NCBI GenBank assembly: GCA_021814165.1
Contig: JAKAIX010000004.1
Location: forward strand, 1 to 45,591
Source of the DNA: a bacterium
GTDB taxonomy: Bacteria > Patescibacteriota > Minisyncoccia > UBA6257 > GWB1-50-10
Reading direction: 5' to 3'
DNA length: 45,591 nucleotides
The notes beneath the pieces were generated by a model. That model had not been told where the DNA came from and searched no databases. It saw only the letters and a list, made by a program, of their open reading frames with translations. A program made the translations under genes and the position numbers. Position 1 is the stretch's first letter. The number at the start of each line of letters is the position of its first letter. This document shows, piece by piece, positions 9,375 through 29,097 of the stretch.

Positions 9375-11216
9375 TCAATCCGCTTTCTTTACTTTTTCCA
9401 GCGCTTCCTTGAGAGCGCTCCGGAGTTCTTCCACATTTAGTACCTCTTCTGATTCCTCTTTTTTCTTCTTTGTCTCTGTGCCTGAGTTTGTCTCGAGCGC
9501 ATGAAGGGAAAGCGAAGATATTTCTGACTGAGGGGCCATCACCGACTCTTCCTCGAATGTTGTTTTTGGTTTCTCCTCTGTTTTCAACTCGTGTGTTTCA
9601 CGCGGCGGATGAGACGAATGGTGCTGCGGATCGTGCGGAGATTCGCTTTTTTCCTGTTTTTGTTCAGTCGATCGCGCCGGTTGTATCCCGAATTCTATGC
9701 CAAGATTCGCAAGCGCGGCATATTGTTGTTCTCTCGGCTTACCGTCTTTCAACTCCCGCGGCGCCATCCGTACCGGCTTCATTTCGCCCGATTTTATCTT
9801 TGTAAGGCAGTCCTTGCAATACACGGGGCGGCCCTCCTCGGGCTCGAAGGGTACCGTCGTCGCCTTGCCGCAGGAAGAGCACACTACTTCAAACTGGCCC
9901 TCGCTCGGTCCCATCACTCCCGTCCATTTATTGATTTCATCTTCCACTATCCATCGGGGGCGGGCATAATATTTTCTCGAGTACTCAATGATTTTTTGTT
10001 CTATATCTTCGGAGGTGCTCAATTTAAACGGCGGGAGCGTGGCGGCGGAGAACGGACGGCTGGTAACGCCGTTTACCATGAGCTTCAGATAAATATTGTA
10101 GTTCGGAAGGTTCACGAAATCCTCGGGTGCGAACTCCGGTTCGAATTCTTTCTCCAGGAATTCCGCGTCCGCCGCACCTACCCTGAACACAATCATCGTC
10201 CCGACGTTTCCGAATACCGCATCGCGCACCTTAGTCGAGACATCCGTTACGAGCTGCCCCACGTACTGATGGGCAAGTACGAGATCTAAACGATATTTCC
10301 TCGCCTCGGAGAGGATGCTCGCAAACGAATCGGTCGCGAAGTTTTGAAACTCATCAACGTAGAGAAAGAAGTCGACGCGCTCTTCTTCGGGGACGCGCAC
10401 GCGTTCCATCGCGGAGAGCTGAATTTTTGTAATAAGCATGGCGCCCAAGAGCGCCGAGTTGTCCTCGCCTATTCTTCCCTTCGACACGTTCACGAGAAAT
10501 ATCTTCCCCGAATTCATGATATCGAAAATATCAAAAGTGCTTTTTGCCTGTCCCACGATATTTCGGACGACTGAGGTCGAGAGGAATTGCCCTACCTTGT
10601 TTTGAATAGGAGCGATTGCTTCGTTTCTGAATTGATCTCTCCATTCCTCGTATTCATTCACCCAAAATGCTTTCACAACGGGATCCTTGAGATTAGAGAC
10701 AATCTTTCCACGATACTCCTTGTCGACAAGGAGACGTGTAATTCCTAATAGCGTCGATCCCGGGGTATCCAAAAGCGCGAGAATCGCATTATTCAAGATA
10801 TATTCCATTCTCGCCGACCAGACATTCGACCAGATTTTCGTGAAAATGCCCATAAGACCCGAAGCAACGAGATGTTTATACTTCGGATCGGGAAGTTCGA
10901 GCACGTTGAACCCAAGATGGAAATCCGTATCCGCGGGATTGAAGTACACGACGTCCTTCATTCGCTCTTCGGGAATCTTGTGCAGAAGATCCTCGATAAG
11001 CTCGCCGTGCGGATCCACGACGCAAATCCCCTCGCCGTTCGCGATATCCTGTACGATCAAATTATTCAAAAGCGCCGATTTTCCGGTACCGGTCTTTCCG
11101 ATTACGTACGTGTGCTGACGGCGATCTTTTCGCCTGATACCGAAAAGCCGGTTTGAGTTCCGGAAATTGGTTTTGGCAAAATACACGACGTCCTTGTCAG
11201 CTTCCTCGTTTGGCAT
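9375..11216 (-). CDS. TraG/VirD4-like ATPase with C-terminal zinc ribbon
   Basis: 613-residue soluble ATPase of the HerA/FtsK-TraG class. Walker A is GKTGTGKS (40-47). The adjoining CVVDPHGELIEDLL and Walker B FFLYVDEFQNF are typical of CPR TraG/TraM-recognition proteins, as is the AHQYVGQL motif. After the ATPase a Cys4 zinc ribbon (VCSSCGK ... VYCKDC, about 440-470) is followed by a long acidic, lysine-rich tail. No transmembrane segment is seen, so any membrane link would be through a partner. A paralogue with the same core but no ribbon lies at 24472-25917. A TGC-TATAAG extended -10 (11238-11233) lies between two hairpins upstream. DNA or protein pumping is the family role; the substrate is unknown. 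Confidence 0.85.
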   Translation of the reverse strand: MPNEEADKDVVYFAKTNFRNSNRLFGIRRKDRRQHTYVIGKTGTGKSALLNNLIVQDIANGEGICVVDPHGELIEDLLHKIPEERMKDVVYFNPADTDFHLGFNVLELPDPKYKHLVASGLMGIFTKIWSNVWSARMEYILNNAILALLDTPGSTLLGITRLLVDKEYRGKIVSNLKDPVVKAFWVNEYEEWRDQFRNEAIAPIQNKVGQFLSTSVVRNIVGQAKSTFDIFDIMNSGKIFLVNVSKGRIGEDNSALLGAMLITKIQLSAMERVRVPEEERVDFFLYVDEFQNFATDSFASILSEARKYRLDLVLAHQYVGQLVTDVSTKVRDAVFGNVGTMIVFRVGAADAEFLEKEFEPEFAPEDFVNLPNYNIYLKLMVNGVTSRPFSAATLPPFKLSTSEDIEQKIIEYSRKYYARPRWIVEDEINKWTGVMGPSEGQFEVVCSSCGKATTVPFEPEEGRPVYCKDCLTKIKSGEMKPVRMAPRELKDGKPREQQYAALANLGIEFGIQPARSTEQKQEKSESPHDPQHHSSHPPRETHELKTEEKPKTTFEEESVMAPQSEISSLSLHALETNSGTETKKKKEESEEVLNVEELRSALKEALEKVKKAD

Positions 11217-11460: not shown

Positions 11461-13236
11461 TTACATCATCTCCCCTTGATAACATTGTTCACAATAGACG
11501 ATGGCAGGTGATTCGGGCGAGTAGCTTGTTTCGAACTCGTTGAGGCACGGTTCATCGCCATGAAAGTGTTTCGCGGAATTCACGTAGGTATGGGGTCCTT
11601 TTTGCCTTCCCGTTTTGCTTCTACAATCACAGCGCCTTTTCCGTAACACAAACGGGTTTCGCATACTGAGACGCGCTTTGTGACGGCAAAAGAAACAGCG
11701 ACGCGGCAACGGAATATTCATATGACGATAAAATTGGAGTTCCCGAGAGATAATCCGATAATTGCGATTACATTCGATGCAGACGAGAATTTCATCGGTC
11801 ACGCTATCACGCACATCTTCAATTGCATCAGGCAGATCTTCTGTCTTTATCGTTTCCTTACCGGTTGTAAATGGCTGATTTCTGCGCCAACTGAGTCCCC
11901 TTGACCTCGCCTCTTGTTCTTCAAGCGGAAAGTAATCTTGCGCCAGACTCTCGTTATAACCGAAATATGACAATTCAGGCGGATAAAACTCTCCAAATTT
12001 GTAGACGATACCATTCTTATCGACATATGGCATGGAATCCATGTGCGCGATAATCTTAGGTAGCATCATTTCATATTCCTCTTTGGTATACTGTTTGTTC
12101 AAAATACAGTATTGGGCTTTCTTAAGACCAACACAACCGAAAATATTTTCCGAAGAGTGGCAACCATCCACATAATAGTAATCACGATTTTTCCAAGAAA
12201 AGATCGGGAAGCGCCCGACATAGGTATGATCCGGAGTGATTCCCTCATATGTGAGTGACAGCTCCCCACCAACCGTGAGATCATAGCTGTCCTTCGGAGT
12301 GTCGCAACCTTCGGCATACCGGCAATTTTCACCTCGTTGTATCAGGAAACAATCACGGCTGTTTTTACAGTTACTCAGATAGTCTCCGGTCGAGCTAACG
12401 GTATTACGAAATAACGCAAAACGGCGCGGGGAGGTGTAAAGTAATTCCGAAAATTCTTTCCTCGCGCGTTCCACCCCACTAAAAGTATTAAGTTTGTAAC
12501 CGGAAAGTATTTTTTCGTACTCTTCCTTAGAATACTGTTTATTTTTAAAGCAATATCGCTGGTGACGAAGTCCGACGCACAAGAGACAATCGCTGCAATC
12601 TCGGCAATCATATGCGAAGGAACAATCGGAAAGCGCAACCGAATCATAGACATAGCGGCACTGATAGCAATCCTCTATGAAGATTCCTTCATATACGTAA
12701 CTATTGGAGTTAAGAATGTGCAAACAATCCACCAGATATTTACCATCAACCATATAATATCCGTAGAGACAATCCTCCAGCTTCCATGCAATAAAAATCA
12801 TGTAACAATTCTTGGAACGCGCGAAATCCTGGTTATACTCACAATTCACGCTTCCTCCGATAAGTCCGTCGTCGTTCACCAGCGCAAGATATGGCACCCG
12901 TTTCTGTAACTCGTTGAATTGTAAAAAGAACGGTTTTGAGAAATCATATTCTTGCGCGAAATCTTTGGGATCCCACTTGTCAGACCACCAACACTTCACG
13001 CAGTAGACCGTTAAACCGGAATCTTTCGAATAAAGGGAGATAATATTCTTACCGCATAGATCACACGTTCTCTGATAAAGATTCATGTCATTGCGCCATG
13101 ACATGCGACGCTGTTTGCGACATACGGGGCACCACGTCGGCGGGGGCACGTCCATCTTCTCGTAGAATGTAAAATCATCCGGTTCGATGACGAAGGATTG
13201 TTTGCAATTTTGGCAGGTCTTGGTTTCTGAATTCAT
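11461..13236 (-). CDS. cysteine-rich multi-zinc-ribbon repeat protein, array member 7 (last)
   Basis: 591 residues with about 36 cysteines by my count, no signal peptide and no membrane helix. Order: ribbon 1 (Cys8, 11, 36, 39); ribbon 2 (Cys58, 61, 79, 82) ending in CWWSDKWD; a cysteine-laddered repeat region (about 130-240) ending in LRHQRYCFKNKQYSKEEYE; a second such region ending in LKKAQYCILNKQYTKEEYE (about 371-390); a YKFGEFYPPEL...YNES linker; ribbon 3 (Cys486, 489, 514, 517); and ribbon 4 (Cys536, 538, 564, 582, 585 with His557 and His559). Ribbons 1 and 3 share the exact C-x2-C-x24-C-x2-C spacing. The start overlaps the previous gene by 4 bases. Function unknown; zinc binding and a beta-helix-like core are inferences. 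Confidence 0.85.
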   Translation of the reverse strand: MNSETKTCQNCKQSFVIEPDDFTFYEKMDVPPPTWCPVCRKQRRMSWRNDMNLYQRTCDLCGKNIISLYSKDSGLTVYCVKCWWSDKWDPKDFAQEYDFSKPFFLQFNELQKRVPYLALVNDDGLIGGSVNCEYNQDFARSKNCYMIFIAWKLEDCLYGYYMVDGKYLVDCLHILNSNSYVYEGIFIEDCYQCRYVYDSVALSDCSFAYDCRDCSDCLLCVGLRHQRYCFKNKQYSKEEYEKILSGYKLNTFSGVERARKEFSELLYTSPRRFALFRNTVSSTGDYLSNCKNSRDCFLIQRGENCRYAEGCDTPKDSYDLTVGGELSLTYEGITPDHTYVGRFPIFSWKNRDYYYVDGCHSSENIFGCVGLKKAQYCILNKQYTKEEYEMMLPKIIAHMDSMPYVDKNGIVYKFGEFYPPELSYFGYNESLAQDYFPLEEQEARSRGLSWRRNQPFTTGKETIKTEDLPDAIEDVRDSVTDEILVCIECNRNYRIISRELQFYRHMNIPLPRRCFFCRHKARLSMRNPFVLRKRRCDCRSKTGRQKGPHTYVNSAKHFHGDEPCLNEFETSYSPESPAIVYCEQCYQGEMM

Positions 13237-15002
13237 GCTATTTCGCTATTGTAGCACTGCTCACAGTATACAATTTCCGGTCGATCGGGTGCGTAGCTTG
13301 TTTCGAAGGTATTGGGACAGTGACCACCTCCATGAAAATGCTCCGTAGCGTTTTGATAATTGTCTCCTTCTCTTTTCTCCCCTCCGCATTGGCATGTACG
13401 ACGGTAAAGTCGGGGCGGATTTACACGCTTGCATCTCTCCGCGTAACGGCAATTCGGGCATTTTCTTGGAATCGGCAGTTCGAAACGACGCAACAGCAGC
13501 AGTTCGTTCGGCACAACCCGGAACGGGTTTTTGCATTCCATACATTCGATGATTTCATTCAAAATGGCGTCTTTGATGTCGTGAATGCTGTCCGGAAGAT
13601 CTCGAGTGTCTACCGTCGGTTGGTGGGGATTCGGTCTCTGCTCATACCAAGAAAATCCCCGCTTTTCCGCCTCCTCTTTGCTAAGAGGAAAGAAACTGGG
13701 CGCATAACTCTCGTCATATCCGGAAAGACTGAATTCCGGAGGAAAAAACTCGCCGTATTTATAAACTCTTCCTTTTGAATCAACATACGGATGTTCGTTC
13801 ATGTCGTGGATGATCCGTTCGCGGAGTTTTTTATATTCTTCCTCGCTATATTGTTTATTTAAAATGCAAAATCGCTTATTCCTCATATTCGCGCATCCGA
13901 AGAGATATGACGACGAGATTACGAAAAGAGAGTATTCGATTTCACGCACATTCGGCCATGCTTGAAAGGAGCACTTTATCGTGTCCGCTCCTTCTCCCAC
14001 GATCATGCCTTCATAAATCCTCTGTGCGCCGTTTCCCCAAATAGTGTAGTCGTATGAATCCTTTATCCCGGTCATGGTCATAAGTTGGCAATAACGCGAA
14101 TTCTCGGCACCTTCGTGGACAACGTACATATTCTTCGAGTTTTTCGATTCGTATATATAATCCCCGGTAACGTTCAGATTACGAAGCGCGTGAGAAAATT
14201 TATGGGGGTATTTCTCCCAAAACTCCGTGGACTCTTTTTTGAAATGTTCCACGTTTTTATACGAATCCACGTGAAATCCCTCTAATTTCTTCTTGTACTC
14301 TCCCTTCTCGTACGGTTTATTGAAAATGCAGTAATTTTTCTTTCTCAAACCGACACAACCGAAACAATTGCTGCAACCGATACAATCCTTTGAAAAATAC
14401 GTTTCCTGACAATCTTCGCAATCTTCAGAAAAGAACGTCCGATAACACGGCCCGGAATTCACGAGACCGTAACAGAGCTCCGAACCTCCGGTCATGGTAG
14501 AATCCATCAGGTCCTTATTGTGCAAAAGATACTCAGAATAAAGCACGTTTTCGCACTCATCCGCGGTAAAAATGAGGTAACAGTTCTTCGCGGTGGCACA
14601 GTGGTTCACATATTCGGAGTTAACCAACGTAGGATAATTGGAATCAAGCGCGACTTGGGGAGTTTCCCTTATAAGATCTCTCAATTGTTCCAGAAAGGGG
14701 CGTGACGGATCGTATTCACGTGCGTACTGGCCGCTGTCCCATTTATCACTCCACCAACAGACATTGCAATATACAATCAGTTCTTGCTCGGGAGGATACG
14801 ACGATATCATGGATTTCCCGCACATGTCGCATCTTCGCTTGAAGAGACCCCTATCGTTCGCAAACGCCAATCTGCGTTGAAACCTACACTCCGGACACCA
14901 CGTGGGTAGCGGTACCCGCATCCTTTCGTAGAACGTGAAGTCATCGGGTTCGATGACAAATTGATTCTTGCAACTTTGGCATATTCTCGTCTCGGTATTC
15001 AT
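13233..15002 (-). CDS. cysteine-rich multi-zinc-ribbon repeat protein, array member 6
   Basis: 589 residues with the same plan as its neighbour. Ribbons 1 and 2 have identical cysteine positions (8, 11, 36, 39 and 58, 61, 79, 82). The two core motifs read CFGCVGLRKKNYCIFNKPY and FGCANMRNKRFCILNKQY. The second core half carries KDSYDYTIWG, a motif shared by most members. The C-terminal ribbon is the H-x-H type: CQC, then EHFHGGGHC, then YCEQCY. It is preceded by a 29-base spacer holding an AGGAATT-rich dispersed repeat whose end, AGGAATTATG, may provide a weak ribosome site. It overlaps member 7 by 4 bases. Function unknown. Confidence 0.85.
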   Translation of the reverse strand: MNTETRICQSCKNQFVIEPDDFTFYERMRVPLPTWCPECRFQRRLAFANDRGLFKRRCDMCGKSMISSYPPEQELIVYCNVCWWSDKWDSGQYAREYDPSRPFLEQLRDLIRETPQVALDSNYPTLVNSEYVNHCATAKNCYLIFTADECENVLYSEYLLHNKDLMDSTMTGGSELCYGLVNSGPCYRTFFSEDCEDCQETYFSKDCIGCSNCFGCVGLRKKNYCIFNKPYEKGEYKKKLEGFHVDSYKNVEHFKKESTEFWEKYPHKFSHALRNLNVTGDYIYESKNSKNMYVVHEGAENSRYCQLMTMTGIKDSYDYTIWGNGAQRIYEGMIVGEGADTIKCSFQAWPNVREIEYSLFVISSSYLFGCANMRNKRFCILNKQYSEEEYKKLRERIIHDMNEHPYVDSKGRVYKYGEFFPPEFSLSGYDESYAPSFFPLSKEEAEKRGFSWYEQRPNPHQPTVDTRDLPDSIHDIKDAILNEIIECMECKNPFRVVPNELLLLRRFELPIPRKCPNCRYAERCKRVNPPRLYRRTCQCGGEKREGDNYQNATEHFHGGGHCPNTFETSYAPDRPEIVYCEQCYNSEIA

Positions 15003-15031: not shown

Positions 15032-16738
15032 TTATACTACTTCCTTAAGATAACATTCTTTGCATAAAATGTACGGCGCTTCCTCTTCCGTATAGTTCGT
15101 GGTGAAATCCGTGCCGCACTTGTCGCATGTTCTCGGAATCATCCTCAAATTTTTTACCCACTGCTTAAATTTTTCGTTGATCCTACAGAAAGGACATCGA
15201 CGCGGTAGCGGCAACCGCATCTGCCTCAAGAATGAAAGTTCCATCGCCGTAATCCTAAATCCCTTGCTGCACGTTTCACATTCTACCACCTCATCCAAGA
15301 TATCGTCCCCCGCGTCGTTTATATGATCCGGCAGATCTCTATATGACTTCGTAATCGTGTAGTTCCGCTCCTCCGGTTCGGCATAATAATACCCCTCTTC
15401 TTCCGCCTCCTTTTTCGAGAGCGGGAAAAAGTCATTTGCGATCGTCTCGTTATAGGCGAACTGCGCAAGCTCAACCGGAAAGAACTCGCCATATTTGTAT
15501 ACTCTCCCCTTTTTATCGACATACGGCATTGTGTCCATGTGCTCGCGGATCTTTGCCGTAAGCGTCTTGTATTCTTCCTCCGAGTACTTTTTATTCAAGA
15601 TCACATATTGACTTTTTCTTACCGCTACACACCCGAAGTGATGTGCGGCGCCATTTGAAAGTTTGCAGTAATTCGCGTCGATTAGGTTCAAACCACATTC
15701 CTGAGCAAAACGAACCCCCGAAACATCTTCTCCGACATTGCAGCATTCATAGCAGCGCGCCATATTATTTCCCCAACTCGAGATATCATATGAATCCTTC
15801 GTGGGGCGATCTTCTGCCATGAGGATAAACTTCGAATCCTGCACGTTTGTGGAATCGAAGCATTCTTTGCAGTTCTTCGACTGAAATACGTAGCTTCCCG
15901 TACAATCGACCGAGAAATCATCATACTTCGGTCTCGGCGGGAATTTTTTCCAGTGTTCTTCGGCTGCGTCCGCGGCTTCCCTGTATACCCTATATGATCC
16001 AAGATCCCATTTCTTAAGTTCCTCAAAATATCCTTCCCTGGAGTATTGCTTGTTAAAAATGTAATACTTCGAATTCCGAAGATTCGCGGATCCAAAGCAA
16101 TTTTGACAGTTATCACAATCACGCAGGAAGTAGCACTCGAGCGAATTCGTCACGTTTCCCCTTGTTCCCACACAACGATTGTTTTTGAACGCGTTCTGGT
16201 TGTCATAGCACATCTCGCAATTCATCGCGCACACGGTGTCGAATACCGACTTGTTGTGTACTTGGTAGAATCCGTACGCCGAATCTTCAATGTAATCCGC
16301 ATGAAAGAGGAGATAACAATTCTTAAGATGTCCCGTATGATTCGTATAAGGAGACGTTTGCATAGCAGGGATATCTATTGAGACCCCGAGAACCGGCGTC
16401 TCGCGCCATAACTCCCTGAACTGTTCGAAAAACGGGCGCGAAAAATCATACTCCCTGCCGTATTTGAATACATCCCAATCGTCCGACCACCAGCACTTCG
16501 GGCAGTACACTACATAAGGGGACTCGGATCGATAGGTCGATATAAAATCTTTTTTACAGAGATCACACGGACGTTTGTAGAGATTGAAGATGTTGAAAAA
16601 CGCCAGCCGCCTCTGGAGCCGACACTTGGGGCAAAACGTCGGCGGCGGTACCTGCATCTTCTCGTAGAACGCGAAATCCTCCGGTTCGATCGTGAACCGG
16701 CTTTTGCAATTCTGACAGAGTCTTGTTTCCGGATTCAT
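15032..16738 (-). CDS. cysteine-rich multi-zinc-ribbon repeat protein, array member 5
   Basis: 568 residues from the ATG at 16738. A longer reading from 16789 would run 50 bases into the upstream gene and lacks family similarity before MNPETRLCQNC, so I reject it. Ribbons 1 and 2 are intact. In the core it shares the stretch NNR...G-R-GNV and CYFLRD with member 4, and the second motif is changed to FGCVAVRKSQYVILNKKY. The C-terminal ribbon is the simple type (CDKCGTDFTTNY ... YILCKECY), with no H-x-H insert. Members 4 and 5 look like the closest pair. One base separates its start from the stop of member 4. Confidence 0.84.
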   Translation of the reverse strand: MNPETRLCQNCKSRFTIEPEDFAFYEKMQVPPPTFCPKCRLQRRLAFFNIFNLYKRPCDLCKKDFISTYRSESPYVVYCPKCWWSDDWDVFKYGREYDFSRPFFEQFRELWRETPVLGVSIDIPAMQTSPYTNHTGHLKNCYLLFHADYIEDSAYGFYQVHNKSVFDTVCAMNCEMCYDNQNAFKNNRCVGTRGNVTNSLECYFLRDCDNCQNCFGSANLRNSKYYIFNKQYSREGYFEELKKWDLGSYRVYREAADAAEEHWKKFPPRPKYDDFSVDCTGSYVFQSKNCKECFDSTNVQDSKFILMAEDRPTKDSYDISSWGNNMARCYECCNVGEDVSGVRFAQECGLNLIDANYCKLSNGAAHHFGCVAVRKSQYVILNKKYSEEEYKTLTAKIREHMDTMPYVDKKGRVYKYGEFFPVELAQFAYNETIANDFFPLSKKEAEEEGYYYAEPEERNYTITKSYRDLPDHINDAGDDILDEVVECETCSKGFRITAMELSFLRQMRLPLPRRCPFCRINEKFKQWVKNLRMIPRTCDKCGTDFTTNYTEEEAPYILCKECYLKEVV

Positions 16739-16739
16739 A

Positions 16740-18446
16740 TCAAAAAATATACTCAAGATAACACTTCGTACAATATGCGATGGGCGCATCCTCTTTCCGG
16801 TAACTCGTTCTGAAATGTTTCCCGCACTTATCGCAATCCCGTTCGATGAGAGTCATTTGCCACGACCAACGCTTCACTTTTTCCTCTATCCGACAAAAGG
16901 GGCAGCGCCGCGGAAGCGGCAGGTTGTGCTGTCTTAGAAATTGGAGTTCCTGGTGGGTTATCTTGTAACCTCTCGGACATGTCGTACATTTGATTACCTC
17001 GTTCAAGACACCATCTTTCGCGTCCCGAACGTGATCGGGTAAGTCCGCCGCATTCATGGTAGTTGCATATTCATTCGGTGACATTTCCGCCCACGTAAGG
17101 CCCCTTTGTAACGCTTCTTCCTTATCAAGCGGGTAGAACATCTGCGCGAAAGTGTCGTTATAATCGTGGGGAGAAAGAGACATGGGAAAAAACTCACCAT
17201 ATTTATATTCATACCCCATCGCATCCCTATAGGGCGATGCTTCCATATGAGCCAATATCTTTTTTCTTATCGCGTGAAAGGCCTCTTTATCGTATCGTTT
17301 ATTGAACACACAGTACTCTTTGTTTCTCAAGCCGGAACATCCCAGAAGAAACGCATCGTTCATACAGCTCTTCGAATATTCGACGTGGTGGCTATTATGG
17401 ATATCCTGGCTGAACTTTACGTCGGAAACGTTATTGCCTATTGTTATGCCCTCGTAGATCCGCTCCGCGTTTTCTCCCCAATCTACATAGTCATAACTAT
17501 CTTTTACACTCGGGGTCTTAATAAGCATCATATATTTGCAATCTTCACAGTATCCGGAATCGTAACACTCCTTGCAGTTTTTCGAATAAAAAACATAGTT
17601 GCCGGTGCAGTTATCGTTAAACATATAGTCGTAGCATGGATTCGGGATCGAGTTTTTCCAAATTTCTTCGGCGCGTGATTTCATCTCCTGATACGTCTTG
17701 TACGAACCGAGATCCATTTCATTTAATTTCTTTTCGTACTCTTCCTTCGTTAGTTGCTCGTTGAAAAAAACGTACTTCTTGTTGTGCAGGTTCGCCGAAC
17801 CGAAGCAGTGCTCCGCGCTTTTCGCGTCACGAAGGAAGTAGCAATCGAAAGAAGTATGAACATTTCCGCGGGATCCGTGGACGCGGTTGTTTCTGAAACC
17901 GTTCAAACCGTCATAACACTGCTCGCATTCCCAATATACGCTGCAATCGAGAAGTGATTTATCCCGTGTTAAATAGAAGCCATATTGGCAATCCTCATCG
18001 TAGTCCGAGTAGAAAATCAGATAACAGTTCTTGGAGTGATCGCAATGGTTGGTATACGGAGAAAGCTCGGTCACGCTTTTTGTGACCGCGATGCCCCGTA
18101 TGGGGACTTTGTGCAGAAATTCGTCCAGCTGCTCGAAAAATGGCTTTGAAAAATCATACTCGCGGGCGTAATCTTCGGGATTCCACTTATCCGACCACCA
18201 GCAGTCCGCGCAGTATACCGTATAGGGCGCATCCGGTTTGTACATCGATATCTTTTCTTCTCCGCATAGATCACACTTCCTCTTATACAAGCGGAACCCC
18301 TTGAACCACGCCAACCGCCTCTGGAGTCGGCACTTCGGGCAAAACGTCGGCGGCGGCACCTGTATCTTTTCGTAGAACCCGAAGTCATCGGGTTCCATAA
18401 CGAATGGGTTCTTACAGTTTTGGCACGTTTTCGTCTCCTGATTCAT
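16740..18446 (-). CDS. cysteine-rich multi-zinc-ribbon repeat protein, array member 4
   Basis: 568 residues, sister to member 5. All four ribbons keep their cysteines: CQNC/CPKC, CDLC/YCADCWW, CTTC/CPFC and CDKC/YCTKCY. In the first core half the usual LRNK motif reads CFGSANLHNKKYVFFNEQL, and in the second LRNKEYCVFNKRY. Between them lie NCTGNYVFYSKNCKECYDS and DSYDYVDWGENAERIYEG, which give a clear sense of a repeating extended-strand structure with cysteine at regular positions. It overlaps member 3 by 4 bases, which suggests coupled translation. Function unknown. Confidence 0.85.
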   Translation of the reverse strand: MNQETKTCQNCKNPFVMEPDDFGFYEKIQVPPPTFCPKCRLQRRLAWFKGFRLYKRKCDLCGEEKISMYKPDAPYTVYCADCWWSDKWNPEDYAREYDFSKPFFEQLDEFLHKVPIRGIAVTKSVTELSPYTNHCDHSKNCYLIFYSDYDEDCQYGFYLTRDKSLLDCSVYWECEQCYDGLNGFRNNRVHGSRGNVHTSFDCYFLRDAKSAEHCFGSANLHNKKYVFFNEQLTKEEYEKKLNEMDLGSYKTYQEMKSRAEEIWKNSIPNPCYDYMFNDNCTGNYVFYSKNCKECYDSGYCEDCKYMMLIKTPSVKDSYDYVDWGENAERIYEGITIGNNVSDVKFSQDIHNSHHVEYSKSCMNDAFLLGCSGLRNKEYCVFNKRYDKEAFHAIRKKILAHMEASPYRDAMGYEYKYGEFFPMSLSPHDYNDTFAQMFYPLDKEEALQRGLTWAEMSPNEYATTMNAADLPDHVRDAKDGVLNEVIKCTTCPRGYKITHQELQFLRQHNLPLPRRCPFCRIEEKVKRWSWQMTLIERDCDKCGKHFRTSYRKEDAPIAYCTKCYLEYIF

Positions 18447-20161
18447 ATGATTACCTTCTTATGACACTCATCGCACACGACGTGATCCCGCATCCCCTGC
18501 GGCGGCATCCCGATGACCGGCGTTCCGCACAAAGAACAAGGCAGCTCCTCGAGTACGAGATTGTTAAGCCATCCGAATCTTAATTTCATACGTTCCTCCG
18601 GATGAAACTCCGGTATCGCAATATGTTCTTTCTTATAAAACGCGAGTTCCGCCTTCGTCAAACGGAACAATCTCCCTGTCCCGCGCGACGCCAACGCAGA
18701 ATCCAAAATATCGTCGGAAACTTCTTCTATGTCCCCTATGGTAGCGCTGTCCACAATCTTCCCCGAAAACTCCGAATGTTCCCCGACCACATACCATATC
18801 CCCTCTCTTTTCGCTTCCTCTTCCGACAAGGGATCCGATAATTGCGCAAGCGAAGCGTTATAAGGGAATGGACTGAGCTTGATCGGGAAAAACTCCCCAT
18901 ATTCACCATTCTTGAGCATCGCTGTTTTTATCTCGTCCAGTTTCCTCCAATATTCGTCCTCCGAATATTGGACGTTCAAAATACAGAACTTCTTGTTTAC
19001 CAGTCCTACACACCCAAAGCAATTATCGCACGATCGCATGTTCATGGAGTACTCAAGGTTATGGCATTGTCCCCGAAGCATCGAGCTGAACTTTATTTCG
19101 AATCCATCATATGGGGAGACGGTAAAGTAACACTTCTCCGGTTTCGTACCGAGAAACACATCCATCGAATCTTTCGCGGCAAGCTGAAAATCATCATATC
19201 GCAGATTTTCACCTCCAACGACGAAAAAACATCGGTAGCAGTCCTTACAATTCTCCAGAAGATTCCCCGAGGAACGGACACTCTGCTCATTCAGGGAAAT
19301 TCTCTTCGGCGACTCCCGCAATAATTCAAGAAATTTGTCTTTCCAACGTTCCAATTCGCTCGCGTTCCCGAGATTTATCTCTTCCATTTTTCTCTCATAC
19401 TCTTCTTCCGACAATTGCGTGTTGAAGAAGTTGTACTTCTTATTTCTCAGGTTCACGCACCCGAAGCAGTATTCGCAATTCCGGCAATCGTACAAAAAAG
19501 CGCTTTCGAGACAATATTTCGAGAAATAGGTAAAAAAACAATGATAGCAATCCCTTACGTGTACTATGTCAAAACATTTATCCGACGACCACGAGACGAG
19601 CACGTCGACGTCGTCCCTGGAATGCATCGGCCAGTTGCCATACTGTACATTCTCGGCATTCATGCCTCCGAACACGTAGTAGCAATTTTTCAGTTGAACG
19701 CCGTAGGCCGCATACTCGCTGTCGACACTCATTGGATCTCCGGTATTTGCCGCCTGCGGCACCTGTTTTTTTATATTATCGAATTGCTCAAAAAACTGCT
19801 TCTTTTCGTCGAAGCTGCTCCCGTAATTCATCGGATCCCAGTCCCCACTCCAGTAGTAGTCAAAATCAAAGATGGGAGACGGTCCTCCCTCCGGAATCTG
19901 CGAAATGAGCATTTCATTGTGCCCCGGAACATTGCATTTTTTCTTGAAAAATGTCGTGTAATTCGTGAAAGCTCTTCTCGTTCGAACACGGCATCTCGGG
20001 CATAAGAGAGGCGGTGGGACGCGGAGCATTCGGTAGAAACCGATGTCCTCCTTTTCAATATTGAAACGCTGTGCGCATTGTTTACAGACACGCTCATGAG
20101 GTACGAGTTCTAGGAGAATCGCATCGAGTGCCTTGTCGAATTGTGGGGTTTTTGAGGTCAT
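18443..20161 (-). CDS. cysteine-rich repeat protein, array member 3, with degenerate ribbons 2 and 3
   Basis: 572 residues from the ATG at 20161, which overlaps the member 2 stop by 4 bases (ATGA); the longer reading from 20245 is an out-of-frame overlap and is rejected. The most divergent member. It has an N-terminal extension, DAILLELVPHERVCKQC, that resembles the lead-in to ribbon 3 of its paralogues. Ribbon 1 is intact (Cys26, 29, 54, 57). Ribbon 2 has lost its second cysteine pair (FDYYWSGDWD in place of YCxxCWWSDKWD), and ribbon 3 has no cysteine at all (ASRGTGRLF ... EFHPEER). Ribbon 4 is the simple type. The core motifs CFGCVNLRNKKYNFFNTQL and FGCVGLVNKKFCILNVQY remain. The pattern suggests relaxed or altered metal binding with the fold kept. 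Confidence 0.82.
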   Translation of the reverse strand: MTSKTPQFDKALDAILLELVPHERVCKQCAQRFNIEKEDIGFYRMLRVPPPLLCPRCRVRTRRAFTNYTTFFKKKCNVPGHNEMLISQIPEGGPSPIFDFDYYWSGDWDPMNYGSSFDEKKQFFEQFDNIKKQVPQAANTGDPMSVDSEYAAYGVQLKNCYYVFGGMNAENVQYGNWPMHSRDDVDVLVSWSSDKCFDIVHVRDCYHCFFTYFSKYCLESAFLYDCRNCEYCFGCVNLRNKKYNFFNTQLSEEEYERKMEEINLGNASELERWKDKFLELLRESPKRISLNEQSVRSSGNLLENCKDCYRCFFVVGGENLRYDDFQLAAKDSMDVFLGTKPEKCYFTVSPYDGFEIKFSSMLRGQCHNLEYSMNMRSCDNCFGCVGLVNKKFCILNVQYSEDEYWRKLDEIKTAMLKNGEYGEFFPIKLSPFPYNASLAQLSDPLSEEEAKREGIWYVVGEHSEFSGKIVDSATIGDIEEVSDDILDSALASRGTGRLFRLTKAELAFYKKEHIAIPEFHPEERMKLRFGWLNNLVLEELPCSLCGTPVIGMPPQGMRDHVVCDECHKKVII

Positions 20162-21924
20162 GCCACTTCCGCCTGATAACACTGTTCGCAGTATACGATT
20201 TCCGGTCTCTCGGGCGAGTATGGCGTTTGAATCGTATTTGAACAACGAGCAGCGCCATGAACGTGAGAAATAAGATTTTTATAATTTCCACGCTCTGAAG
20301 AAACCCCTGTGCACTCACAGGATCTCTCGAAGAGCTTTCGGGGAAGGAGTTTTTTCATTCTCGCCTTATGGCGCTCCAGCGGCGAAACGCGGGGAATTGG
20401 AAGCTGCATCCTTCTATAAAACTCGAGTTCCATAGGAACGAGGCGATAGGGTTTACCCGACACCTCACATTTCAGAACCTTTTGGAGAATATCATCTTTC
20501 ACATACCCAATATCATCCGGAATCGCGTAGTCGGAGAACTCGTATCTCGCGTCCGACTCGTAGTCGCTCCATAAATATCCTTTCCCAATCGCTTCTTCTT
20601 TCGTAATCGGGTAGTAATCCTGCGCCGCGGTTTCGTTATAACCGTACGGAGCGAACTCCACGGGAAAGAACTCTCCATATCCATATACTCTCCCGTTTTT
20701 CCCTTCGTACGGCATATCCGCCATATGCCGCCGTATTTTCGGCACAAGCGTTTCGTACTCTTCTTTCGTATATTTCTTGTTCAAAACGCAGTACTCCCCG
20801 CTCCTCATATTGGCGCATCCGAAGCAGTTCTTGCTGTCGATCACGGAATAGCAGTACTCGACGTCGGATGAGTGTATTTTTTTCAAAGGATCGCCGCTCA
20901 TGCAGAAGTTGCAGAATTTCGAGTTATACACTCCCCCGCCGCTCGCGCACTCGTAGCTCAACTCGGATGCGCCATGCGCGCTCTCGTCATAGCTGTCGCG
21001 AAGCCACCCTCCTATATAGATATGTTTCGCATCCTCGCTGTCTTCCACGTCCCAGGAATCGAACACCCGTTTCGAATTGGTGATGTGGTTTCCGCTCACT
21101 TCGTTCGATCTCAGTATGGACGCGAAACGATGGGGAACGACGTTCCAGAGCGTTTCTGCGCGGGCGCGCAACTCGCTGAAGTTCTTATACGAACTCAGCG
21201 GATGTTCTTCCAGAAATTCCTCATACGACTCCTTCGAGCGGGGTTCGTTAAACAAGTAGTATTGCTTGTTTCTGAGTCCCGCACACCCGAGGCAGTTCGA
21301 ACAGTTCCGGCAATCGAAAGAAAAAAATATGTTTTGAGAGTCGGAACAATCCCTTGAGCCCACGACGCGATAACATTTCTCGCAGTTGATATTTTCGTAC
21401 GCGAGCTCGCTGTTCAGCATCCAGAAATTATCGAGGGAATTTTTGGTATAAAGCGCATAGGTATTGTACGCGGAATCTTCGTTGTAGTGTCCGCCCACGT
21501 TCAGATAGCAGTTCTTGTCATCGGTTTCCTGATTCACCCACTCGCTGTTTACGGTATTCAGGTTCAGGATCGAAACGTGCGGCGTCACGTACAATAGCTC
21601 CCTGAACTGTTCGAAAAAAGGGCGCGAAAAATCATACTCCTTCCCGTAAGAAAACGGACTCCACGTGTCGCCCCACCAGCATTTTTTGCAGTACATCGGA
21701 TATGGTTTGTCGGGCGAGACGCGCGAAACGACCGTCTCTCCGCACAAATCGCATTTCCTTTTATAAAGTGCGCGTTCGTTCCTCCATGCGATCCTCCGTT
21801 GCTCCCTGCATTCGGGGCAGAGTGTCGGCGGCGGGACCTGTATACGCTCGTAAAACGAAAGATCATCGGGTCCGATGACGAAAGGATTCTTGCAATTCTG
21901 ACAAATCTTAGTCTCTTGATTCAT
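20158..21924 (-). CDS. cysteine-rich repeat protein, array member 2, with degenerate ribbon 3
   Basis: 588 residues. Ribbons 1 and 2 are intact. Ribbon 3 keeps the surrounding residues (YRLVPMELEFYRRMQLPIPR) but three of its four cysteines are gone (CEVSGK and VSPLERHK). Ribbon 4 is the H-x-H type (CECTG, SHVHGAARC, YCEQCY). Core motifs are CLGCAGLRNKQYYLFNEPR and CFGCANMRSGEYCVLNKKY. A 36-base spacer carrying the AGGAATT repeat separates it from member 1, as in front of member 6. Because members 2 and 6 share spacer and ribbon-4 type, they may descend from a duplicated block. Function unknown. Confidence 0.84.
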   Translation of the reverse strand: MNQETKICQNCKNPFVIGPDDLSFYERIQVPPPTLCPECREQRRIAWRNERALYKRKCDLCGETVVSRVSPDKPYPMYCKKCWWGDTWSPFSYGKEYDFSRPFFEQFRELLYVTPHVSILNLNTVNSEWVNQETDDKNCYLNVGGHYNEDSAYNTYALYTKNSLDNFWMLNSELAYENINCEKCYRVVGSRDCSDSQNIFFSFDCRNCSNCLGCAGLRNKQYYLFNEPRSKESYEEFLEEHPLSSYKNFSELRARAETLWNVVPHRFASILRSNEVSGNHITNSKRVFDSWDVEDSEDAKHIYIGGWLRDSYDESAHGASELSYECASGGGVYNSKFCNFCMSGDPLKKIHSSDVEYCYSVIDSKNCFGCANMRSGEYCVLNKKYTKEEYETLVPKIRRHMADMPYEGKNGRVYGYGEFFPVEFAPYGYNETAAQDYYPITKEEAIGKGYLWSDYESDARYEFSDYAIPDDIGYVKDDILQKVLKCEVSGKPYRLVPMELEFYRRMQLPIPRVSPLERHKARMKKLLPRKLFERSCECTGVSSERGNYKNLISHVHGAARCSNTIQTPYSPERPEIVYCEQCYQAEVA

Positions 21925-21960: not shown

Positions 21961-23673
21961 CTACGCCACTTCCGATTGATAACACCGTTCGCAGTACAAG
22001 ATTTCTTTCGTGTCAGGGGGATAGTTCGACTGGAACGTGTTCGAACACCTTCCTTCCGGATGATGAGAATGTACTGTCGAGTTCTTATACGTCTTGTAAT
22101 CGCACCCGCACTGTCGCGACTCGAAGAGCCGGTTGGGTCCGCGCGCACGGAATCGTTTCAAGTGTCTGCAATCGGGACATTCTCTCGGCAAAGGAACCTC
22201 GAGGTGTTTGTAGAACTCGAATTCACCCGGAATAATCCGAAAATTTTTTTTGCATGCGGTGCATACGAAAATTTCCTTCGGCACGTCGATTCGAATGTCC
22301 TTGATCGAATCGGGAACCGTATCCCAAGAAACAGACTCCTTTCCGTATGTCCCGCGCGGGGTACCTTCCCACGAGAATCCGAGCGCAAGCGTTTCTTCTT
22401 TCGAAAGAGGAAACTGATCCTGCGCGGCACTTTCGTTGTAGCCGAAGGCACTCATTCCCGCGGGGAAGAATGTACCGTATATCCCGTCCCGCTTCATGTC
22501 CGTAATGATTTCCTGCCTTTTCTCCTCATATTCCTCCTTGGAATACTGCTTATTGAGAATGCAATAATCCTTCTTTCTCAGTCCTACACACCCAAAACAG
22601 TGATTCGAATTGAAGCAATACGATGAGTATTCCATAAAACTGCACGACCAACACACCGCACAGCTTATGTAATGGGAGGTGTCGATGCCCGCGTTGATCG
22701 AGTTATAGATAAGTTCGGCTCCTCTCCCCGCCGTATCGCAGTCCATGCAATCCTTCGCATTCCGCCACACGTGCACCCCGTATGTACAATCCTCGGAATC
22801 GTAGCAATGGAAGCACGAACGACAGTTTTTCGCGTCTTTGATGTAGTTTCCCGAGGAGTTCGGAGCGTTATATACCTCGCCGAACCTCCTCGGTTGCGTC
22901 GCGGCAAACTCTTCGAATCGTTTTCGCATCGCTTCCCTTCCGCTCCACGTGTCGAGACGCGCCTCTTTCTTGAATGTTTCGTACTCTTCTCGCGAGAGCG
23001 ATTTATTGAACACGTGATATTGTTTGTTTCTCAAGTTCACGCATCCGATACAATCGGAGCACCCGCGACAGTCGAGGAGAAAATATCCGTCATGGGAATC
23101 GTGGCATCCTTTGCTGTAAAAAAGTTTGTAGGAGTTATAACAGTCGTCGCTCTCGTACGAAAGTTCCGTCTTCGAGGCAAACGAAACGTCCGTGCAATTA
23201 CGGCATTCCTGAATCCAGTAGCAGTGGGTGCAGTCCTCGTTATTCGAGGACTCGATAATCATGTAGCAGTTCTTGTTGTCGGCCGAGATGTTCACATACT
23301 CGGAATTTACGCTCCGCTCGTACATCAGACCGACCTTCGGCACAGCGTTCAAAAGCGCACCGAGCTGTTCCAAAAATGATCTCGAAGGATTATAAGAGAT
23401 CCCGAAATCCTTCGCGTCCCACGCATCCGAGAACCAGCAGTCGTGACACCACACCCTGAACGGTTTACTCGGACTGTACATCGAGACGCCTTCCTTCCCG
23501 CACCGATCGCACTTCCTTTTGTAAAACGACCGCTCATTCCTGAACGCGAGCCGGTGCCGCGCACGGCACAGAGGACACGATCGCGGGACGGATACGCCGA
23601 TCTTTTCATAGAAGATCGTGTCGTCGGGTTGAATCTCAAAATCCTTCCTACAAATATTACAGGACGCCATCAT
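21961..23673 (-). CDS. cysteine-rich multi-zinc-ribbon repeat protein, array member 1 (promoter-proximal)
   Basis: 570 residues; the first gene transcribed. It lacks the MNxET leader of the others and begins MMASCNIC, giving ribbon 1 as Cys5, 8, 33, 36 with the same 24-residue spacing. Ribbon 2 ends in WCHDCWFSDAWD. The core is the richest in cysteine of the set (for example CTHCYWIQECRNC and CWSCSFMEYSSYC). The motifs CIGCVNLRNKQYHVFNKSL and CFGCVGLRKKDYCILNKQY close the two halves. Ribbon 3 is CTAC/CPDC and ribbon 4 the H-x-H type (VHSHHPEGRC, YCERCY). A TATAAT lies 15 bases before the start. Function unknown. Confidence 0.85.
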   Translation of the reverse strand: MMASCNICRKDFEIQPDDTIFYEKIGVSVPRSCPLCRARHRLAFRNERSFYKRKCDRCGKEGVSMYSPSKPFRVWCHDCWFSDAWDAKDFGISYNPSRSFLEQLGALLNAVPKVGLMYERSVNSEYVNISADNKNCYMIIESSNNEDCTHCYWIQECRNCTDVSFASKTELSYESDDCYNSYKLFYSKGCHDSHDGYFLLDCRGCSDCIGCVNLRNKQYHVFNKSLSREEYETFKKEARLDTWSGREAMRKRFEEFAATQPRRFGEVYNAPNSSGNYIKDAKNCRSCFHCYDSEDCTYGVHVWRNAKDCMDCDTAGRGAELIYNSINAGIDTSHYISCAVCWSCSFMEYSSYCFNSNHCFGCVGLRKKDYCILNKQYSKEEYEEKRQEIITDMKRDGIYGTFFPAGMSAFGYNESAAQDQFPLSKEETLALGFSWEGTPRGTYGKESVSWDTVPDSIKDIRIDVPKEIFVCTACKKNFRIIPGEFEFYKHLEVPLPRECPDCRHLKRFRARGPNRLFESRQCGCDYKTYKNSTVHSHHPEGRCSNTFQSNYPPDTKEILYCERCYQSEVA

Positions 23674-24030: not shown

Positions 24031-24336
24031 CTACCGGACCACCTCAGACATCCACTCTTTATAGGCGTGATTGATGCGACGCACGTCAATAGCTCCGATG
24101 AAGGGCGTAACATAGGCGTGGTTTTGCATGATAAAATCTTCAATCGGCTGCAGTTTTGATTCAAGCGTCTTGATGAGAACCCCGGCTTCTTGGTCCTCCT
24201 TAATTTCTCCCTCCCAGCGGTACGTTGATTGGATCGGCCATACGTTCACGCAGGAAGCCATGTGATGCTCGATAATCAGCTTCGCAAGTTTTTTCCCCTC
24301 TTCCTCATTTTTACAAGTGGTATAAATGAGAACCAT
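24031..24336 (-). CDS. cutA: CutA1-like divalent-ion tolerance protein
   Basis: 101 residues from the ATG at 24336, the usual size for this trimeric ferredoxin-like-fold family. Family markers are VLIYTTCKNEEEGKKLAK, the ASCVNVWPIQSTYRWEGEI segment and EAGVLIKT, with a trailing VTPFIGAIDV strand. A longer reading from 24384 would take its first codons from the dispersed repeat, so I prefer the internal ATG. CutA has been linked to copper tolerance, but its molecular role is unsettled. It is the last gene after the inverted-repeat-bounded ATPase. Confidence 0.88.
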   Translation of the reverse strand: MVLIYTTCKNEEEGKKLAKLIIEHHMASCVNVWPIQSTYRWEGEIKEDQEAGVLIKTLESKLQPIEDFIMQNHAYVTPFIGAIDVRRINHAYKEWMSEVVR

Positions 24337-24374
24337 AACTTTGATGTTTTTAACGACCTTTGAATAAAATTTTC

Positions 24375-24454
24375 CAATTATCAATTTCCAATTTTCAGTG
24401 AATTACAAATTTAAAAATTTTCAAAACCTTACATTTATTGAAAATTGATCATTG
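24375..24454. repeat. 80-bp inverted repeat, left copy, flanking the second TraG-like gene
   Basis: Its reverse complement is identical base for base, as far as I can read, to 25940-26019. The similarity to copy 1 at 11-146 is in the terminal motifs. Each copy is itself an imperfect hairpin. Confidence 0.9.
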
Positions 24455-28074: not shown

Positions 28075-29097
28075 TTACGCTTCCCTTATCTTATAGCGCC
28101 CGTCGTCAAGCCGCTTGAAATACTTGCGATTCTGAAGATTCAAGAGAATCGTATTTTCCTTCAAAAAGCGCTGTTGGTTCACAAGATTCACCACTTCCGT
28201 CGAGTGAAGCGCCCCGTGCGCCGTAAGAAGCCGGGCGATCACTTCCCGCACCGTACCCGCCTCGAACCCGTTCTCCCGAAGCGCGTACACACCGCGTCCC
28301 ACGAGTACGAAACGTTTGTCTTTGATGAGTTCGTTATGAACGGTCTGTATGTGCGCGGATTTTTTATCGAGCCCGTAGCGGTTGATGTATTTAGCGATAT
28401 CTTCGAAATGAAGCGGTTTCTCGTGTTTCTTCAAGACGAGATACACTTTGTCACGGATGGTTTTCGGCGCAATCTCCGGCCACGTTGCGAGTCCGAAATC
28501 GCCGAATACGTTCACTCCGAAGTGCTTAGGAATCGACAGAAGATGACAGGAGATGAGATCCTTACAGTGCATAAGATAGAGTTTTTTGTCGATCAGTTCC
28601 TGTTTCTTCCCCGTCTTCAAAAAATTCGTCACTTCCTTTACGAAATCAAGAAACTTTGTTTTTGCCTTCTCATCGGAATACCAGTATGCGGCGTATTTCT
28701 CATCTTCCTTTGCGTGCGAAGGCACGCCGGCGACAGAAAGAATAAACCGCAGCTTTTCTTCCGCATATTTCACCGACGAATCGATTTTAAGTGCGAAGAG
28801 AAGATCTTGAATAAAAAGATCGTCGCGTCGGATATCTCCCACGGACTTCAGGTGCTTTACCGCGGCCTCAAGAATATGCGCGGCCGAGGCCTTTACCTTC
28901 TCCCGGAGCTTCTTTACCGCCTGCTCCTCGATCTGACGCACCCGTTCTCTCGTGATTTTAAGCTCGTCGCCGATTGCCTGTAACGTCATCACTTCGCCGT
29001 TCTTAAGACCGAAACGGCCGACCACTACCCGGCGCTGTTTCGGAGAGAAATCCGAGAGGAGGTCATCGATAAATTCGTTTATCTTTGTCTCTTTCAT
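28075..29097 (-). CDS. sigma-70 region 4 / HARE-HTH fusion transcription factor
   Basis: 340 residues. N-terminal sigma-70 region 4 (about 14-66): the FSPKQRRVVVGRFGL lead-in, TLQAIGDEL first helix, and the ITRERVRQIEEQAVKKLRE recognition helix as in housekeeping sigma factors. There is no region 2, so it cannot be a complete sigma factor. After a helical linker (about 70-205) comes a HARE-HTH domain (about 211-274, KTIRDKVYLVLKKHEKPLHFEDIAKYI), the fold of the RNA polymerase delta subunit. A second winged-helix-like repeat follows (about 280-338). It may tether polymerase at promoters or modulate it. It has a strong promoter and terminator, so it is a monocistronic unit. Confidence 0.82.
   Translation of the reverse strand: MKETKINEFIDDLLSDFSPKQRRVVVGRFGLKNGEVMTLQAIGDELKITRERVRQIEEQAVKKLREKVKASAAHILEAAVKHLKSVGDIRRDDLFIQDLLFALKIDSSVKYAEEKLRFILSVAGVPSHAKEDEKYAAYWYSDEKAKTKFLDFVKEVTNFLKTGKKQELIDKKLYLMHCKDLISCHLLSIPKHFGVNVFGDFGLATWPEIAPKTIRDKVYLVLKKHEKPLHFEDIAKYINRYGLDKKSAHIQTVHNELIKDKRFVLVGRGVYALRENGFEAGTVREVIARLLTAHGALHSTEVVNLVNQQRFLKENTILLNLQNRKYFKRLDDGRYKIREA

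What the first reader, a model, noticed from the sequence alone, without database searches (positions are those of the whole stretch)
11461..13236. Mirror-symmetric plan: two zinc ribbons, duplicated cysteine-ladder core, two zinc ribbons
Ribbon 1 (C8-x2-C11-x24-C36-x2-C39) and ribbon 3 (C486-x2-C489-x24-C514-x2-C517) have the same spacing and share the F-Y-x-x-M and P-x-P residues between the pairs. Ribbons 2 and 4 also correspond. The core holds two copies of a CxGC-x2-L(R/K)-x3-YC-x2-NKQY-(S/T)-KEEYE motif. Cysteines and aromatic residues recur every 10-20 residues between the ribbons, which suggests stacked strands of a beta-helix or a similar solenoid. This points to an ancestral internal duplication and a fold I cannot match to a named family.
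Basis: partly seen in the sequence, partly recalled or inferred. Interest (0 to 1): 0.8.

Follow-up and report, generated by a model that had tools for sequence, protein, structure and literature searches.

The report
Zinc-ribbon solenoid array beside coupling ATPases
In ultra-small Patescibacteria, a large unnamed family of zinc-ribbon, cysteine-ladder proteins is inherited together with one VirD4-like motor ATPase, and a distant cousin is fused to such a motor, which suggests that these proteins are exchangeable working parts of an uncharacterised secretion-type machine.

Summary
The duplication is real. N- and C-terminal ribbon pairs match at E=2.6e-26 and the two core copies at E=3.8e-37, far above column shuffles. 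Core cysteines keep a strict three-residue register: 95% of copy-1 spacings, 33% when shuffled. AlphaFold gives a confident model (pLDDT 89.6), but no solved fold matches significantly.

The ORF is one of seven tandem paralogues and of 23 copies in a 786-kb Patescibacteria genome, 5.1% of its DNA. The array lies between two VirD4/TrwB-like ATPases. One ATPase type occurs in 29 of 29 genomes with full-length members and in 1 of 171 tested genomes without, usually next to the array. Distant single-core relatives lie directly behind another such ATPase in four genomes and are fused to it in a fifth. Split forms (separate ribbon pair, separate double core) suggest how the plan arose.

Best reading: exchangeable accessory subunits, probably substrate adaptors, of an orphan coupling ATPase. 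Partnership is well supported; the adaptor role is inferred. Secreted-substrate and nucleic-acid roles remain open. The plan is a direct repeat, not a mirror.

The parts
11461..13236 (-). T1, the ORF of the finding: ribbons 1-2 (residues 8-82), core copy 1 (about 125-236), core copy 2 (about 284-384), conserved linker (401-470), ribbons 3-4 (486-585)
13233..15002 (-). T2, paralogue (589 aa); overlaps the start of T1 by 4 bases
15032..16738 (-). T3, paralogue; likely start at 16738 rather than the longest ORF start 16789
16740..18446 (-). T4, paralogue (568 aa); closest to T3 (51% identity)
18443..20161 (-). T5, most diverged paralogue; likely ATG start at 20161 inside the longest ORF (start 20245); 4-base overlaps with T4 and T6
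20158..21924 (-). T6, paralogue (588 aa)
21961..23673 (-). T7, paralogue (570 aa), first gene of the array
9375..11216 (-). T4CPzf: VirD4/TrwB-like ATPase (613 aa) with a C-terminal CxxC-x17-CxxC treble-clef ribbon, downstream of the array
   Evidence: TIGR04272 59.9 bits, cut-off 36; zf_Tbcl_2 57.5 bits, cut-off 27
24472..25917 (-). T4CP2: VirD4/TrwB-like ATPase (481 aa) upstream of the array; the type that co-occurs with the family
26579..27985 (-). MEM: 468 aa, two predicted transmembrane segments; homologous to the N-terminal domain of the longer T4CP2-type ATPases of other classes
   Evidence: hhalign E=2e-37 over 273 columns; no Pfam family
24031..24384 (-). CutA1-like gene between T4CP2 and the array; frequent neighbour, role unknown
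28075..29097 (-). Sigma-70 region 4 / HARE-HTH protein, conserved neighbour of the locus

Best explanation
The ORF belongs to an undescribed Patescibacteria family of cytosolic proteins built as ribbon pair, solenoid core, solenoid core, ribbon pair. Its members are accessory subunits of a VirD4/TrwB/HerA-type ATPase (T4CP2, with its membrane partner MEM). One ATPase is served by 1 to 26 family members. The most likely mechanism is that each member docks on the ATPase through its constant parts (ribbons, conserved core ends) and offers a different solenoid face to bring a different client, protein or nucleic acid, to the motor: an exchangeable adaptor set. Shown: duplication, family, tandem operons, co-inheritance and adjacency with the ATPase, direct adjacency or fusion of a single-core relative to another such ATPase. 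Inferred: physical contact, zinc binding, the adaptor role and what is moved. My estimate is 0.85 that family and ATPase work together and 0.45 that the adaptor mechanism is right.
For: Co-occurrence: T4CP2-type ATPase in 29 of 29 genomes with full-length family members and 1 of 171 without (families counted; Fisher p about 4e-34, without correction for relatedness). It holds inside taxonomic families: f83, 8 with both against 2 with neither; f72, 5 against 2; f51, 2 against 1 (same calls). T4CP2-type is one clade in a tree of 46 ATPase domains (95/86). Adjacency: 18 of 29 within 2 kb, upper-bound expectation 2.2, P 1.6e-14; G284 adds a nineteenth. Operons: in 80 named loci the commonest neighbour is such an ATPase, 29 ORFs in 21 loci, all on the family's strand, median distance 189 bp. 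Gene order SecD-SecF-sigma/HARE-MEM-T4CP2-array recurs in named Liptonbacteria and other Parcubacteria records. Single-core relatives: 4 genomes with the gene directly behind an ATPase (23-base overlap to 20-base gap), 1 genome with both in one ORF; these 5 are all the single-core genomes found among 379. Paralogue sets are old: 21 of 23 own copies are nearer to a copy in another organism than to any own copy, which fits distinct maintained roles. Variable solenoid turns between conserved ends.
Against: The adaptor step has no direct support; no complex was modelled. Sixteen of the 23 own copies lie away from the ATPase, among housekeeping genes. In 5 of 29 genomes the ATPase is clearly more than 2 kb from any family gene seen (G357, G365, G217, G307, G340), and in others a contig end or a cut listing hides it. 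G132 keeps T4CP2 without the family. The single-core partner ATPases are only 22-28% identical to T4CP2/T4CPzf. The fusion rests on one genome assembly. Phylogenetic non-independence inflates the p-value.
Confidence: 0.45

Rival explanations
1. Secreted substrates: the family members are themselves the cargo of the coupling ATPase, sent out through the T4SS to the surface or into host cells, with ribbons as the recognised ends and the solenoid as the active part.
For: Many divergent paralogues per motor (1-26); no signal peptide or transmembrane segment seen by a hydropathy scan, so any export would be Sec-independent; the motor can exist without the family (G132) but the full-length family was not seen without the motor; the T4SS ATPase VirB4/TraG is present in 37 of 38 genomes tested.
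Against: In the simplest form there is one solenoid per ATPase and once it is fused to it, which fits a machine part better than cargo. Cys4 ribbons and free core cysteines suit a reducing cytosol. VirB4 is equally present with and without the family.
Confidence: 0.2
2. Nucleic-acid handlers: zinc-ribbon proteins that bind DNA or RNA for a HerA/FtsK-like DNA-translocating motor (uptake, segregation, repair).
For: The ATPases score above Pfam cut-offs for TrwB_AAD_bind, DUF87/HerA and TraG-D_C; zinc ribbons often bind nucleic acids (general knowledge); a ComEC gene lies 2.7 kb beyond T4CPzf in the window and in some named loci.
Against: ComEC adjacency is not general. No nucleic-acid-binding family was matched by the core. 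The strongest link is to the ATPase, not to DNA-repair or competence genes.
Confidence: 0.2
3. Defence or conflict module: a HerA-like ATPase with a changing set of sensors.
For: Patchy distribution with 0 or many copies; weak PADLOC similarity of the ATPases to mad8 (E about 1e-13 to 1e-14) and HerA.
Against: No PADLOC match for the family members or MEM tested; neighbours are housekeeping genes; paralogues are old and conserved rather than rapidly exchanged.
Confidence: 0.05

Closest known systems
T4SS coupling proteins of the VirD4/TrwB/TraD type and the orphan T4CPs of Patescibacteria (PMC12102498, passages read)
   Same: T4CP2 and T4CPzf pass the Pfam cut-offs for TrwB_AAD_bind, TraG-D_C and DUF87. 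The paper reports 5,713 VirD4-type T4CPs in 2,918 genomes with only 148 near virB4 and says exaptation cannot be ruled out.
   Different: The passages I read mention no partner family; here one T4CP type is tied to a multi-paralogue zinc-ribbon solenoid family. NCBIfam equivalog cut-offs are not reached.
Dot/Icm coupling complex adaptors IcmS, IcmW, LvgA on DotL (PMC3441705, PMC7251119; abstract starts in the search listing only)
   Same: Accessory proteins that bind a coupling ATPase and bring subsets of substrates to it; the proposed role here works like this.
   Different: No sequence relation claimed or tested; few adaptors there, up to 26 paralogues here; ribbons and solenoid here.
Beetle antifreeze beta-helix (TCTxSxNCxxAx, 12-residue coils; PMC8038014, passages read)
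   Same: Inward residues every third position (C2, S5, C8, A11), the same three-residue register as the cysteines here.
   Different: Repeats here are irregular, longer proteins, with ribbons; no homology claimed; no ice-binding role implied.
Treble-clef ribbons zf_Tbcl (PF13451), zf_Tbcl_2 (PF23477), TIGR04272
   Same: Ribbon spacing and weak matches at the ribbons; T4CPzf carries a true TIGR04272 ribbon.
   Different: All family matches are below the curated cut-offs; the core is not covered by any model.
Cysteine-rich extracellular proteins of Peribacteria (PMC4736985, passages read)
   Same: Cysteine-rich paralogue cluster in Patescibacteria.
   Different: Those average 1,655 aa and most have a predicted signal peptide; these are about 585 aa without one by hydropathy scan.

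Membership tests
zf_Tbcl / zf_Tbcl_2 / TIGR04272 ribbon families | score above the curated cut-off | tested here: not met
   T1 zf_Tbcl 19.8 against 24; T6 zf_Tbcl_2 17.0 against 27; T6 TIGR04272 17.8 against 36
zf_Tbcl / zf_Tbcl_2 / TIGR04272 ribbon families | two CxxC knuckles with the family spacing | tested here: met
   C58-x2-C61-x17-C79-x2-C82 in T1; kept in 77 of 113 relatives
VirD4-type coupling protein (for T4CP2) | TrwB/TraG P-loop and TraG-D C-terminal motifs over cut-off | tested here: met
   TrwB_AAD_bind 30.1 against 20.5, TraG-D_C 25.5 against 22, DUF87 26.1 against 23.2
VirD4-type coupling protein (for T4CP2) | N-terminal transmembrane anchor | tested here: inconclusive
   none in T4CP2; two in the neighbouring MEM, whose soluble part is fused N-terminally to T4CP2-type ATPases elsewhere, where the scan finds no N-terminal segment
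VirD4-type coupling protein (for T4CP2) | NCBIfam coupling-protein cut-offs | tested here: not met
   best TIGR03743 44.8 against 366, NF045973 44.2 against 250
VirD4-type coupling protein (for T4CP2) | recruits substrates to a T4SS channel | not testable with these tools
   VirB4/TraG-type ATPase is elsewhere in the genome, G000:C8
Left-handed beta-helix (LpxD/GlmU/gamma carbonic anhydrase) | structural match to solved members | tested here: inconclusive
   full model: Foldseek best E 0.18, VIA Z 5.1, rmsd 3.2 over 120 residues; core-only model E 1.8, Z 3.3
Beetle-type antifreeze beta-helix | inward residue every third position | tested here: met
   95% of Cys-Cys distances in core copy 1 are multiples of three, 66% in copy 2
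Beetle-type antifreeze beta-helix | regular 12-residue TCTxSxNCxxAx coils and ice binding | not tested
   no such search was run; the distance histogram peaks at 3 and 12 but also at 9
Peribacteria-type extracellular cysteine-rich proteins | long protein with signal peptide | tested here: not met
   544-618 aa; no hydrophobic segment in T1-T7 by Kyte-Doolittle scan, which is a crude test
Known anti-phage defence families | PADLOC model match of the family protein | tested here: not met
   none for T1, T5, T7 at E<=0.01; the other four were not scanned

The most novel reading that the evidence does not exclude
Many Patescibacteria run an orphan coupling ATPase with a library of up to about 26 interchangeable zinc-ribbon solenoid receptors, each choosing a different client for transport; the library is stable over deep time and takes 5% of a minimal genome, so it decides what these epibionts exchange with other cells.
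Probability: 0.25. Interest if true: 0.92.

Novelty: categorically new. Interest (0 to 1): 0.72.

Why it matters
Patescibacteria have very small genomes, yet this genome spends 5.1% of its DNA on one unnamed family. The published survey of their T4SS leaves most of their VirD4-type ATPases without a system (PMC12102498, passages). A family that comes and goes with one such ATPase, and whose simplest relative is fused to another, gives those orphan motors a first candidate partner. It turns the open question of what they do into a binding and localisation experiment. The cores also offer an unusual cysteine-ladder solenoid worth a structure.

Tried and rejected
Read as a lone protein with a mirror plan: rejected, it is one of 7 tandem and 23 genomic copies and the repeats are direct. 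Phage or plasmid gene: no plasmid match; one weak ribbon match in phages; one edge match in viral contigs. Recent tandem amplification: rejected for this genome, 21 of 23 copies are nearer to copies elsewhere. TBCC-like helix (T5, E=0.025, cut-off not reached): dropped as insignificant. Hexapeptide left-handed helix: not shown; hits weak, and for the core-only model weaker. The core-only model was worse than the whole (pLDDT 79.2). No solved sequence relative at E<=0.1. The link to VirB4 itself: rejected, VirB4 is present with and without the family. All 16 dispersed own copies being tied to the ATPase by position: rejected. Rows dropped before counts: of 32 genomes positive, G194, G265 and G334 hold only split or partial members and were left out of the 29; G334's ATPase groups with T4CP2-type (100/98), G194's and G265's do not. 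Of 347 family-negative genomes, 171 were tested. The T4CP2-type label rests on a higher score to T4CP2 than to T4CPzf at the same place; the tree checks it for 20 of the 29 (window plus 19 fetched) and for G132. Four of the 80 genomes and 25 of the 79 had no T4CP2 match at the threshold and count as without it. The counts include overlapping loci. Papers: searches found no description of this family; only open-licence papers are held and most listings were off topic. PMC6744442 was read by term passages only and does not mention zinc or cysteine.

Full report
WHAT IS IN THE SEQUENCE. The ORF at 11461-13236 (-) is 591 aa with 36 cysteines. By profile-profile alignment of 113 relatives, the N-terminal ribbon pair matches the C-terminal pair (E=2.6e-26, 83 columns) and core copy 1 matches core copy 2 (E=3.8e-37, 113 columns). 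In 100 column-shuffled controls each, the best scores were 25.0 and 19.6 against 139.3 and 208.1. The repeats run in the same direction, so the plan is a bracketing direct repeat and not a mirror. The stretch 401-470 is conserved and has no partner in the first half.

THE CORE. In copy 1, 95% of 4,124 Cys-Cys distances up to 36 residues are multiples of three; residue shuffles give 33% (maximum 35% in 200). In copy 2 it is 66% of 1,721. One inward position every three residues is the register reported for beetle antifreeze beta-helices, whose side chains run out-in-out-out-in (PMC8038014, passages). This is an analogy of geometry, not kinship. AlphaFold2 with 113 sequences gives mean pLDDT 89.6 and pTM 0.91, with the solenoid turns weakest, 65-75. 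Foldseek finds no PDB match at E<=0.001; the best are left-handed beta-helix enzymes at E 0.18, and VIA Z 5.1 with rmsd 3.2 over 120 residues. A core-only model was poorer and matched nothing better. I take the core as a tight beta-solenoid whose exact type is open.

AN ARRAY AND A FAMILY. Seven paralogues, 30-51% identical, stand head to tail on the minus strand from 11461 to 23673. With the likely starts given under parts, three of six junctions are four-base overlaps. The genome holds 23 copies, 40,485 bases or 5.1% of 786,274. Of 379 genomes drawn from the phylum, 32 matched. The 29 with full-length members carry 1 to 26 copies, median 9. The 80 best named loci, out of at least 546, carry Patescibacteria/Parcubacteria titles or unnamed bacterium titles, with Candidatus Liptonbacteria nearest at 64-65%. 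Distribution outside the phylum was not tested further. In the loci, all 140 adjacent full-length pairs are on one strand and 98 lie within 100 bases; overlapping loci are included. Twenty-one of 23 own copies are nearer to a copy elsewhere than to an own copy (FastTree), so the set is old. Sixteen own copies lie elsewhere, singly or in twos and threes among housekeeping genes (gene identities there read by eye).

THE ATPASE LINK. The array stands between two VirD4/TrwB-like ATPases, T4CP2 (24472-25917) and T4CPzf (9375-11216); T4CPzf carries its own CxxC-x17-CxxC ribbon. In the 80 named loci the commonest neighbour of the family is such an ATPase: 29 ORFs in 21 loci, all on the family's strand, median distance 189 bp. 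The order SecD-SecF-sigma/HARE-MEM-T4CP2-array recurs. I called an ATPase T4CP2-type when its place scored higher with T4CP2 than with T4CPzf as query. By this, 29 of 29 genomes with full-length members have one: 24. Of 171 family-negative genomes, 1 has it: 1 of 20, 0 of 80, 0 of 71. The exception, G132, has T4CP2 and T4CPzf side by side and no family member. Within taxonomic families the two go together: f83 8 with both and 2 with neither, f72 5 and 2, f51 2 and 1; in f11, 3 with both and G132 against. A tree of 46 ATPase domains puts T4CP2-type in one clade (95/86) with the ATPase of G334, a split-form genome, as sister (100/98). T4CP2-type lies within 2 kb of a family gene in 18 of 29 genomes, upper-bound expectation 2.2, P 1.6e-14, hidden cases counted as not near; G284 makes 19. 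Related genomes are not independent, so these p-values are guides only.

MEM. The gene upstream of T4CP2 (26579-27985) has two predicted membrane segments. Its soluble part is homologous to the N-terminal 290 residues of the longer T4CP2-type ATPases of other classes (E=2e-37, 273 columns; 16 sequences). This fusion pattern suggests that MEM and T4CP2 work as one unit.

SIMPLER FORMS. In G334 and G194 a stand-alone ribbon pair of 98-99 aa is followed directly by a double-core protein of 301-347 aa without C-terminal ribbons. In G334 the pair follows directly on the ATPase gene; in G194 a sigma/HARE gene follows the core and the ATPase lies about 2 kb further. G342 has the same two modules in reverse order (321 and 93 aa), and G121 has a 318-aa double core 69 bases behind T4CP2. 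A search with core profiles found single-core relatives of 230-240 aa in G190, G067, G302 and G345. All four start between 23 bases before and 20 bases behind the end of a 673-747 aa ATPase gene on the same strand. These ATPases are 44-51% identical to each other and 22-28% to T4CP2/T4CPzf. In G286 the ATPase (Walker A at residue 84) and the core (497-620, E=1.3e-14) are one 629-aa ORF. Against G302 the join lacks about 86 residues of the ATPase tail and about 44 of the core start, so a one-base error would not make it (my reading). A second profile search of 379 genomes found no further single-core genome. Single cores match core copy 1 at E=4.9e-13 and copy 2 at 1.4e-11.

HOW IT MOST LIKELY WORKS. 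Shown: family, duplication, operons, co-inheritance, adjacency, one fusion. Inferred: the proteins bind the ATPase. One solenoid per motor in the simple form, once as part of the same chain, points to a machine part. In the window's form the part has been doubled, bracketed by ribbons and multiplied, while one motor remains. The simplest account is a set of exchangeable adaptors, much as IcmS/IcmW/LvgA bring subsets of substrates to DotL (PMC3441705 and PMC7251119, listing abstracts only). I give 0.85 to partnership and 0.45 to the adaptor role. The secreted-substrate rival (0.2) draws on the number of paralogues and on the asymmetry seen in G132. The nucleic-acid rival (0.2) draws on the ATPase superfamily and the ribbons.

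WHAT IS KNOWN. The T4SS survey of Patescibacteria counts 5,713 VirD4-type T4CPs in 2,918 genomes, 148 near virB4, and leaves other functions open (PMC12102498, passages). VirB4/TraG-type ATPases are present in 37 of 38 genomes tested here, with or without the family. I found no description of the family in searches. I call it categorically new because the family, its fold class and its one-motor-many-partners arrangement match no known kind that I could test; the motor itself is of a known superfamily.

Noticed in passing
window 24031-24384: A CutA1-like gene sits between T4CP2 and the array; CutA1-like genes recur beside family arrays in 9 of 80 named loci.
   Followed up: partly
window 28075-29097; L159:2451-3494: Sigma-70 region 4 plus HARE-HTH protein next to the ATPase locus, also beside the split form in G194; possibly a regulator of the module.
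   Followed up: no
L126, L127, L133, L134, L135, L136, L138, L141: TrmB-like HTH genes, often on the opposite strand, beside or inside arrays in several other-class genomes (two of them confirmed as TrmB by Pfam).
   Followed up: partly
L122 (G132), L123 (G365): T4CP2 and T4CPzf lie side by side without an array between them, as a possible empty site.
   Followed up: partly
L164:2891-3586 and the other single-core genes: In single-core relatives many ladder positions hold serine rather than cysteine; the cysteine ladder may be a later change (by eye).
   Followed up: no
G000:C9 (L119), C5, C8, C10, C11: Dispersed family copies sit beside ribosomal-protein, tRNA-synthetase and glycolysis-like genes (gene names by eye).
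   Followed up: no
G014:C113:1514-3271: One family gene of G014 carries an in-frame TAG.
   Followed up: no
L101, L204, L205: Short matches to the family core in viral contigs, at the contig edge in L101; could be host sequence.
   Followed up: no
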